From Chthoniobacterales bacterium (lineage in GTDB: Bacteria > Verrucomicrobiota > Verrucomicrobiia > Chthoniobacterales > DASVRZ01): DNA of 64,000 bases. Below are positions 10,069-62,632 of this stretch, one piece after another; position 1 is the first letter of the stretch, and every line of letters begins with the position of its first letter. The position numbers and the translations under genes were made by a program. Location of the stretch: the NCBI GenBank assembly GCA_039930045.1, contig JBDSQB010000003.1, positions 186,001 through 250,000 on the forward strand, written 5' to 3'. Below the pieces are notes generated by a model that saw only the letters and a program-made list of their open reading frames with translations, was not told the origin of the DNA and made no database searches.

Positions 10069-10228
10069 AACTAATTTTTCTCCTGTAGGTTTAAGTTTGC
10101 GGTGCCAGCCGGACTTCATGCCCGCAGCATCCGAGTCGGATATGAACGGTTTTCATGGCAGTGACAAGCTAATTTGTTCTACTTAATACACCTGCGCGTT
10201 TGCGCAGCGTCGGAACCGGCTTTGACGA

Positions 10229-10470
10229 TCCACTCTGCCGCCAAGTCCATTGCAAAAACCCGTAATGCCCCGCGCAGTCCTGCCAAGTGCCTTGCAAAAA
10301 CTCACAAACCGTCGTGCAGCGCTGCAAACCTCGTTGCAAAAACTCACAAGGCTCCGCGCACTCCTGCAAACCTCATTGCAAAAATCTGCGAGGCTCTGTG
10401 CAGGGCTGCTAGTGCCGTTGCAAAAAACCGAAAACTGTTGTGCAGCCTTGCAAACTTACCTACAAATTTC
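10229..10470. repeat. 42-bp tandem repeat array, about five and a half units
   Basis: The motif TTGCAAAAA recurs at 10250, 10292, 10334, 10376 and 10418, exactly 42 bp apart, with a degraded sixth copy at 10460 and a partial unit before 10250. Each unit also has a GCAG-NN-CTGC-like inverted repeat, perfect as TGCAGCGCTGCA near 10316-10327, and often a second short A-run about 11 bp before the TTGC. Because 42 is divisible by three, several frames stay open through the array, but none has a supported start, so I treat it as non-coding. It fills the 418-bp gap between two same-strand genes; outside the array the gap shows nothing else. Confidence 0.9.
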
Positions 10471-59895: not shown

Positions 59896-60050
59896 CGTTC
59901 CCAAGCTCCAGCTTGGGAACGCACTTGTCTTGGAAGCTCCAGCTTCCTAGCCACACCTGACACGCAAGATTCGCGAGCCTCAATGGACCACCAAGCCGAC
60001 GAAGCAGAGCTTCGGGGACACTCGCGTTCCCAAGCCGGAGCTTGGGAACG
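59896..60050. repeat. Cluster of palindromes ahead of lpxB
   Basis: Four stems lie in the 187-bp gap: CGTTCCCAAGCT-cc-AGCTTGGGAACG at 59896-59921, GGAAGCT-cc-AGCTTCC at 59932-59947, CGAAGC-aga-GCTTCG at 60000-60014 and CGTTCCCAAGC-cgga-GCTTGGGAACG at 60025-60050. The 60009-60052 stretch is nearly the same as 14436-14477. The bases directly after it, AGGA at 60051-60054, form the likely lpxB ribosome-binding site. Confidence 0.85.
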
Positions 60051-60062
60051 AGGAATCTGGTG

Positions 60063-61175: not shown

Positions 61176-61495
61176 AGATCACACCCGAGCGGCTGGAGGA
61201 ACTCTGGAAATCGCCCGTCAACTGGCGCGCGGGATTATTCTATCATTGCCCGGAGGACCCGCGGATCATCGTTCCCAAGCGGCAGAAATGGCGCGGCTGG
61301 ACGATTAATTTCGCCCGGCGCGGCGCAATTCCGGTGTTAGTCGGCTGTGTTTTGTATGTCACCGTGCCTTTGGGTTATGTGGCGTGGCTGGGTTACATTC
61401 TTACCTGGGTCTGGTGGACGACGCTCGCTGTGATCATTCTGCTCATGTATCCCATGTGCTGGTATCTCGCCTCGCCCCGGCGTTTCCGGGATTAA
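61172..61495 (+). CDS. Small two-helix membrane protein coupled to lpxB
   Basis: 107 residues. A charged start with WKSPVNWRAGLFYHCPEDPRIIVPKRQKWRGWTINF is followed by two helices (GAIPVLVGCVLYVTVPLGYVAW and WVWWTTLAVIILLMYPMCWYLA). It overlaps the lpxB stop by 4 bp (ATGA), so a role in lipid A or the membrane is plausible. HCPEDPRIIVPKR near residue 27 might be a partner-binding element. I recognise no family. Confidence 0.75.
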   Translation: MKITPERLEELWKSPVNWRAGLFYHCPEDPRIIVPKRQKWRGWTINFARRGAIPVLVGCVLYVTVPLGYVAWLGYILTWVWWTTLAVIILLMYPMCWYLASPRRFRD

Positions 61496-61794
61496 ACCAG
61501 TTCATCCGGCTTCCGCCGGCACCACGGCAGGACGCCGGTAAAGGAGAGTCCGCAGGCACCCGCCATCGCTCCGACGGCCGAGCCCAGAATCATGATCGCG
61601 CCGTATTTGCGGCCCACCTCTTCTCCTGCCCGCCGTCCGATTTTGTAACCCTCTTCGGAGTTGGTGGCTCTGGCCTCCCGCGCTGCGGAAGCGCCCACGA
61701 TGCCCCCAATGACCAGACTGGAACCGAGAAAAAGGACGATGACGAAAAAGATAAAGAGGAAGGACGCAGTGACGAGGCGTTTGAAGAGCAGCAT
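61492..61794 (-). CDS. Small membrane protein, unknown
   Basis: About 100 residues from ATG 61794. One or two hydrophobic stretches (LVTASFLFIFFVIVLFLGSSLVIGGIVGASAA, then IMILGSAVGAMAGACGLSF) with a charged loop EEGYKIGRRAGEEVGRKYG between. The longer open frame upstream continues through the 21-bp repeat array; a start within it is possible but has no support. It overlaps the stop of the convergent small membrane gene by 4 bp. Divergent from the HldE-like gene across the 21-bp array. Confidence 0.6.
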   Translation of the reverse strand: MLLFKRLVTASFLFIFFVIVLFLGSSLVIGGIVGASAAREARATNSEEGYKIGRRAGEEVGRKYGAIMILGSAVGAMAGACGLSFTGVLPWCRRKPDELV

Positions 61795-61850
61795 GGCGAG
61801 GAGACTGGCAGAAAACACCGGGTAGGACAGCCAAAAAGGCCGGTCGCAGG

Positions 61851-62062
61851 GCAAACGACTCAGGTCGTCGATGAAACGACCCAGGTTCCCAGCCAAACGA
61901 CCTCGGTCGTCAGCGAAACGACCCAGGTCGTTGGCCCGACGACCTGGGTTGCAGGGCGGACGACCTCGGTCGTTTAAGCGCCGGACTCGGTCGCTCGAAG
62001 AACGACTGAGGTCGCTTTTGGAAACGACCTGGGTTGTTTGGCCAGCGACCGGGGTTGTCGGG
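61851..62062. repeat. 21-bp tandem array of palindromic units, ten copies
   Basis: The unit core ACGACC-nn-GGTCGT starts (CGAC-like) at 61856, 61877, 61898, 61919, 61940, 61961, 61982, 62003, then 62025 and 62046. Steps are 21 bp except one step of 22 bp. Best copies read ACGACC-tc-GGTCGT, a 14-bp near-perfect palindrome. The array lies in the 352-bp gap between divergent starts (61794 and 62147). Outside it, 62063-62146 shows nothing certain. Both strands stay open through parts of it because 21 is divisible by three, but no start is supported. Confidence 0.9.
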
Positions 62063-62146: not shown

Positions 62147-62632
62147 ATGAGCGTGGTCATTCCTTTTTCTGAGGCGAGTCAGATTCGATTGAAACTCGGA
62201 CTTCCCGAGAGTCGGCGGCTGGTTTTTACCAATGGCTGCTTCGACGTGCTCCATGCCGGGCACGTGCGTTACTTGGAGGGCGCGCGCAAGCTGGGCGACG
62301 CGCTGGTGGTGGGGCTGAATGGAGATGACTCCGTGCGCCAGCTCAAGGGCGAAAATCGTCCGATCAATGGCGAGGACGACCGCGCCGAGGTGTTGACGGG
62401 CCTCCGCTCGGTGGATGCGGTGGTGATTTTTCCGGAGGTGCGGGCGACGGCCTTGATCGAAAAACTGCGGCCCGATGTGTATGTGAAGGGCGGCGATTAC
62501 ACGGTGGAATCGCTCAATCCCGAGGAGCGGGCGGTGCTGGAATCCATCGGGTGCGAGATCGGTTTCGTGCCGCTGGTGCCGGGGCGCTCGACGACGTCCA
62601 CGCTTGCCAAGATGCGCGGTTCTGCGGAATGA
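62147..62632 (+). CDS. hldE: Heptose-1-phosphate adenylyltransferase (HldE C-domain type)
   Basis: About 161 residues from ATG 62147. FTNGCFDVLHAGHVRYLEGARKLGDALVVGLNGDDS contains the nucleotidyltransferase motif (HAGH version of HIGH). ENRPINGEDDRAEVL and KGGDYTVESLNPEE and PLVPGRSTTSTL follow. It makes ADP-heptose for the LPS core. The kinase domain present in E. coli HldE is absent, so the kinase should be a separate gene elsewhere. Its stop overlaps the purN start by 4 bp (ATGA). Confidence 0.9.
   Translation: MSVVIPFSEASQIRLKLGLPESRRLVFTNGCFDVLHAGHVRYLEGARKLGDALVVGLNGDDSVRQLKGENRPINGEDDRAEVLTGLRSVDAVVIFPEVRATALIEKLRPDVYVKGGDYTVESLNPEERAVLESIGCEIGFVPLVPGRSTTSTLAKMRGSAE

What the first reader, a model, noticed from the sequence alone, without database searches (positions are those of the whole stretch)
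61851..62062. 21-bp tandem array of ten palindromic units between divergent genes
Ten units with a palindromic core ACGACC-nn-GGTCGT sit at 21 bp steps (two helical turns), with one 22-bp step. They fill the gap between a small membrane-protein gene and the heptose adenylyltransferase gene. A row of dimer sites on one DNA face is what cooperative regulators or nucleoid proteins often use. It could also be a DNA-uptake or segregation-type site.
Basis: partly seen in the sequence, partly recalled or inferred. Interest (0 to 1): 0.65.

Follow-up and report, generated by a model that had tools for sequence, protein, structure and literature searches.

The report
One of many intergenic 21-bp arrays
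The row of ten palindromic 21-bp units is real, and it turns out to be one of roughly 60 non-coding tandem arrays scattered through this genome that have mostly unrelated sequences but keep almost exactly the same 21-bp step, which hints at a shared and apparently undescribed DNA element whose function is not known.

Summary
In detail: ten units at 61855-62058, nine steps (eight of 21 bp, one of 22), between divergent genes. Only three units carry the exact core. The array is not a unique operator. A second ACGACC-nn-GGTCGT array (11 units) lies elsewhere in the same genome. In 1.26 Mb of this genome I found 22 further intergenic arrays with period 21 and mostly unrelated units; control periods gave 0-2. 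The window holds a second array (10187-10460). The arrays are non-coding: no codon periodicity, and several have stops in all six frames. About 95% of steps are exactly 21 bp although units differ from their consensus at a third of positions, and in the finding's array the core is conserved while the linkers are random. Isolated core sites elsewhere in the genome are at chance level. The rfaE2 locus has no array in 35 other genomes of the order. So the phased-row architecture is supported, but a conserved rfaE2 operator, a wide regulon or a DNA-uptake signal is not. Best reading: a dispersed, helically phased (two-turn) tandem element, probably bound by protein; a functionless satellite is the close rival. 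No published match was found in the papers searchable here.

The parts
61855..62058 (.). array of ten 14-bp palindromic cores (ACGACCnnGGTCGT, degenerate) with 7-bp variable linkers
61897..61910 (.). perfect unit ACGACC TC GGTCGT
61918..61931 (.). perfect unit ACGACC CA GGTCGT
61960..61973 (.). perfect unit ACGACC TC GGTCGT
62002..62024 (.). the single 22-bp step (unit 8 to unit 9); the sister array and array L093 also carry one 22-bp step each
61495..61797 (-). small membrane protein (about 101 aa), divergent gene on the left; no Pfam family above cut-off; homologs in 2 of 37 other genomes of the order
62147..62632 (+). D-glycero-beta-D-manno-heptose 1-phosphate adenylyltransferase (rfaE domain II), divergent gene on the right
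10187..10460 (.). second array of the same general kind in the window: period 21/42, units TGCAGnnCTGCA alternating with TTGCAA-type, intergenic, upstream of a 247-aa ORF of unknown family

Best explanation
The array belongs to a class of non-coding, dispersed, intergenic tandem arrays with a step of two DNA helical turns (21 bp), about 60 per genome by extrapolation (18 per Mb in the third sampled). Shown here: repeated occurrence, the fixed step with diverged units, absence of coding signal, a conserved core with random linkers, and patchy lineage-specific distribution. Inferred: each array is a row of sites on one face of the DNA for a DNA-binding protein, probably acting cooperatively. Near-palindromic cores in about half of the arrays fit a symmetric dimer. 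The arrays would serve as local nucleoid or insulator-like structures rather than as promoter operators, because gene orientation around them is mixed and single sites elsewhere are at chance. They appear to spread to new intergenic sites, in at least one case with about 50 bp of flank, and some lie just 3' of a small helical-protein gene ('MSDL' family) that may be a companion.
For: 22 intergenic period-21 clusters in 1.26 Mb against 0 for periods 17, 19, 20, 22, 23, 31, 32 and 33 and 1-2 for 15, 18, 24, 27 and 30. 312 of 329 unit-to-unit steps are 21 bp with about 2630 substitutions to consensus. No period-3 variability (Fisher p = 0.9986) and stops in all six frames in L104, L113, L144 and L145. 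Core against linker heterogeneity beyond uniform decay in 13 of 26 arrays, window z = 6.6, sister z = 7.5. Unit families recur at unlinked loci. Array plus flank shared between two G316 loci, including an exact 19-mer that occurs only twice in that genome with up to 3 mismatches allowed. Array 3' of the MSDL gene at 6 of 7 such loci in four genomes, base rate 1.8% of genes.
Against: No binding protein is identified. Compensatory change between arms is weak overall (Stouffer 3.0) and not clear for this array. Many arrays have no palindromic consensus. Arrays are absent at the same locus in relatives, as expected of a dispensable element. The MSDL protein is predicted as a three-helix rod without a recognisable DNA-binding fold, and the window array has no MSDL gene beside it. 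Uniform-decay simulations ignore the duplication history of the units, so the heterogeneity test can be inflated.
Confidence: 0.42

Rival explanations
1. Functionless or selfish satellite: 21-bp tandem duplications arise and are copied between intergenic sites by slippage or template switching, then decay. The fixed step reflects the amplification mechanism, not selection.
For: Unit sequences are mostly unrelated between arrays. Orientation of flanking genes is mixed and neighbours are unrelated genes. Locus-specific absence in relatives. Perfect or near-perfect, apparently young arrays exist, e.g. L165 and L111.
Against: Substitution to non-21-step ratio of about 155:1 is far above the roughly 10:1 that I recall for neutral bacterial DNA. 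Conserved core beside saturated linkers is not expected of uniform decay. No arrays at 20, 22, 31 or 32 bp.
Confidence: 0.36
2. RNA-level element: the array is transcribed and acts as a row of small hairpins or a long folded RNA.
For: As RNA the + strand folds at -123.5 kcal/mol, z = -9.7 against shuffles; the - strand z = -7.0.
Against: No Rfam match, no promoter-like site. The array lies upstream of both divergent genes and flanking orientations of arrays are mixed. Palindromic arrays fold on both strands by construction, and non-palindromic arrays exist.
Confidence: 0.1
3. Protein-coding heptad repeats (21 bp = 7 codons).
For: Many frames are open, e.g. TTxVVxx in this array. One other array (L107) is in frame with the start of a porin with a signal-peptide-like N-terminus.
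Against: No period-3 variability in any array. Homologous units in L144 and L145 carry stops in different frames. The 22-bp step shifts frame here and in the sister array. Homologs of the neighbouring gene begin after the array.
Confidence: 0.05
4. Promoter-region operator of the two divergent genes (classical regulator).
For: Position between divergent genes; palindromic sites.
Against: The same unit lies in an unrelated context on contig C5; absent upstream of rfaE2 in 35 other genomes; isolated sites at chance.
Confidence: 0.07

Closest known systems
REP / GTAG- and CGTC-tagged palindromic repeats (PMC3733652), with RAYT transposases
   Same: short intergenic palindromes, many per genome, lineage-specific; reported as abundant in the verrucomicrobium O. 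terrae
   Different: REPs share one sequence family with a GTAG or CGTC tag and occur as single elements, dimers or irregular clusters. Here there are many unrelated unit families in regular 21-bp arrays, and only one marginal Y1-transposase match exists in the genome.
Plasmid iterons and ParR-type centromere repeats (general knowledge)
   Same: tandem protein-binding sites spaced by about two helical turns
   Different: those sit beside rep or par genes, one array per replicon, one sequence; here there are many chromosomal arrays with different units and no such genes seen next to them
Intergenic direct repeats of giant sulfur bacteria, TAACTGA (PMC4679880)
   Same: many intergenic direct-repeat sets per genome
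   Different: one heptanucleotide shared by all sets, not a fixed 21-bp step with varied units
CRISPR arrays
   Same: conserved palindromic part plus variable part in tandem
   Different: 21-bp step with 7-bp linkers is too short for spacers

Membership tests
REP/RAYT elements | GTAG or CGTC tag at one end of a stem-loop of one sequence family, present as many dispersed copies | tested here: not met
   isolated core sites are at chance; units of different arrays are mostly unrelated
REP/RAYT elements | RAYT (Y1 transposase) gene in the genome | tested here: inconclusive
   one weak PF01797 match, 20.8 bits, 23.2 with neighbours against a cut-off of 23
DNA-uptake sequence | hundreds or more dispersed exact copies | tested here: not met
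   6 exact sites in 3.52 Mb, all inside two arrays
Iterons / centromere arrays | tandem sites at about two helical turns | tested here: met
   21-bp steps
Iterons / centromere arrays | adjacent replication-initiator or partition gene | tested here: not met
   neighbours are a small membrane protein and rfaE2; the sister array lies beside the MSDL and LRR-Roc-COR genes
Cooperative transcription-factor operator | conserved with its target gene in relatives | tested here: not met
   no array beside rfaE2 in 35 genomes
Cooperative transcription-factor operator | bound by a protein that changes promoter activity | not testable with these tools
   needs experiment
Coding heptad repeats | codon-position pattern of variation and an open frame | tested here: not met
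Known structured RNA | match to an Rfam family | tested here: not met
   only a tRNA elsewhere in the window

The most novel reading that the evidence does not exclude
Some genomes of this order carry a previously undescribed genome-wide system of 'two-turn arrays': dozens of intergenic rows of sites, each family with its own core sequence, held to 21-bp phase, spread as units and partly linked to a paralogous companion gene family (MSDL), forming a diversified chromosome-organising or selfish DNA-protein system.
Probability: 0.3. Interest if true: 0.78.

Novelty: new variant of a known kind. Interest (0 to 1): 0.55.

Why it matters
Intergenic repeats are normally recognised by shared sequence. 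Here the shared property is the step length, not the sequence, so ordinary repeat searches miss the class (DNA similarity search with two of the arrays found nothing in 96 other genomes). If the step is under selection, these arrays would be a natural, sequence-diverse set for asking how helical phasing organises bacterial DNA. If not, they point to an unknown process that makes 21-bp tandem duplications.

Tried and rejected
Coding heptads (rejected). Compensatory arm changes: a first test that chose the axis by the same statistic gave Stouffer 6.8; with axis re-optimised in the null it fell to 3.0, so I do not rely on it. Intrinsic DNA curvature as the common property: the window array is not predicted to be more curved than column-permuted versions (wedge parameters recalled from memory), rejected as a general explanation. 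Rfam, viral contigs and DNA similarity in the order: nothing. Literature searches for 21-bp, helical-turn or verrucomicrobial tandem arrays: no description found, though only open-licence papers are searchable. MSDL protein fold: no significant PDB match. Conserved array position 3' of deaD (present in G000 and G316): other genomes with a deaD-type gene showed no such array, one weak signal in L228 aside, so probably coincidence. A genome-contig scan with one MSDL protein returned only its own record.

Full report
Observation. The ten units are at the stated place and are far from chance. The core ACGACC-nn-GGTCGT is exact in three units, within one mismatch in two more, within two in three more, and poor in two. 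Linkers of 7 bp are essentially random. One step is 22 bp. The region between the divergent membrane-protein gene (start about 61797, -) and rfaE2 (start 62147, +) is 349 bp, and the array fills most of it.

A sister array. The genome (G000, 3.52 Mb, 23 contigs; window = C3:186001-250000) has exactly one other place with several such sites: contig C5, 203859-204080 (L039:7860-8084), 11 units, again with one 22-bp step. There the left arm ACGACC is intact in all 11 units while the right arm decays. It lies just 3' of a 126-aa gene ('MSDL' family, no Pfam or NCBIfam family) and 5' of an LRR-Roc-COR gene. Outside the two arrays, sites with at most one mismatch are at chance: 15, against 12 for the reversed control pattern.

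A genome-wide class. Identity at a lag of 21 or 42 bp over 105-bp windows was scanned in 1.26 Mb of the genome (window plus taken stretches). Outside predicted genes it gave 22 clusters at period 21; periods 17, 19, 20, 22, 23, 31, 32 and 33 gave none, and 15, 18, 24, 27 and 30 gave one or two each. The finding's own array is not in the 22 because a spurious 222-aa ORF covers it. Extrapolated, that is about 60 arrays in the genome. The window has a second one at 10187-10460. Unit sequences differ between arrays, but some families recur: ACGACC..GGTCGT (C3, C5); CTAA...TTGGCGTCAG (L111, L147); GTCGCTTCnTTAACCCAAGA (L144, L145, 73% identical); a 42-bp unit (L120, L134). Family recurrence other than C3/C5 and L144/L145 was judged by eye.

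Not coding. In 26 aligned arrays the per-column variability shows no period of three (Fisher p = 0.9986), and several arrays have stops in all six frames. L144 and L145 share their unit, yet each has stops in frames that are more open in the other. One genuine exception, L107, is in frame with the N-terminus of a Porin_5 protein.

Constraint. With steps of 15-27 bp allowed, 312 of 329 steps in 29 arrays are 21 bp, while units carry on average 7.35 differences of 21 from their own consensus. Some of the 17 other steps are probably noise at array edges. Detection by lag 21 favours regular arrays, but arrays based on 20 or 22 bp should have been found with the control lags and were not. In 13 of 26 arrays, including this one (z = 6.6) and its sister (z = 7.5), variability is concentrated in linkers beside nearly invariant core columns; the null there is a star-like uniform decay, which is a simplification.

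Palindromes. Consensus palindromicity is significant in about half of the arrays (this one z = 5.3, sister 4.3, L051 4.4, L052 5.1, L054 4.2) and absent in others. Compensatory change is suggestive in single units (G316 array L188: CCAACC/GGTTGG, CCCACC/GGTGGG, AATACC/GGTATT) but weak statistically and not shown for the finding's array.

Distribution. G316 (another family of the order) has four unselected intergenic arrays in 162 kb, one of them at a contig edge with perfect units. G019 has arrays at both of its MSDL genes but none in 113 kb of unselected sequence; G182, G018 and G036 have none in 100 kb each and G028 none in 100 kb; G008 and G014 gave one weak or edge signal each, not examined further. 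Loci around rfaE2 in 29 + 6 other genomes contain no array. The array is therefore lineage-specific at this locus.

Mobility and a possible companion. Two G316 arrays share 121 bp at 74% identity across the array end and flank, including an exact 19-mer found nowhere else in that genome. Arrays lie 3' of the MSDL gene or its remnant at C5, C10 and C3:62.5k in G000, at both loci in G019 and at the locus in G316; the G014 homolog has none. The base rate for a G000 gene is 1.8%. AlphaFold2 predicts MSDL as a three-helix rod (mean pLDDT 84.7, pTM 0.46) without a significant PDB match, so a DNA-binding role is not supported by fold.

Mechanism. The best account is a row of protein-binding sites phased at two helical turns, on a dispersed element; binding and function are inferred, not shown. 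The main rival is a functionless satellite whose step is set by the amplification process. RNA, coding and conventional-operator readings are less likely for the reasons given in the rival list. Curvature does not unify the arrays.

Comparison with known systems. REP elements, iterons or centromere arrays, CRISPR and the TAACTGA repeats each share a trait but fail on a tested defining feature or differ in having one sequence family. No paper describing sequence-diverse 21-bp intergenic arrays was found in the open-licence library, which does not prove that none exists.

Noticed in passing
window 10187-10460: Second intergenic array, period 42 (2 x 21), units TGCAGnnCTGCA / TTGCAAAAAC, predicted strongly curved, upstream of a 247-aa ORF of unknown family and next to an AAA/AbiEii-like ATPase gene.
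   Followed up: partly
L039:7430-7810 and relatives L051, L052, L054, L055: Unknown 120-145 aa helical 'MSDL' protein family with arrays just 3' of the gene; found in 4 of 97 genomes of the order.
   Followed up: partly
L148:6251-9571: ORF of 1106 aa that looks like a Cas9 (judged by eye) directly after an MSDL gene and its array in genome G019.
   Followed up: no
L107:4171-6300: A 21-bp-period stretch that is in frame as heptads at the N-terminus of a Porin_5 protein, downstream of an ExbD/TonB-like operon.
   Followed up: partly
window 59897-59923 and 60024-60052: Two copies of a dispersed palindrome CGTTCCCAAGCnnnAGCTTGGGAACG in an intergenic region before lpxB.
   Followed up: no
L188:3787 and L150 (G316): Exact 19-mer TGTCCAATTTATGACAAAA at the end of two arrays, otherwise absent from that genome; G019 and G000 MSDL arrays end with AGTTACGAAA-like sequence.
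   Followed up: partly
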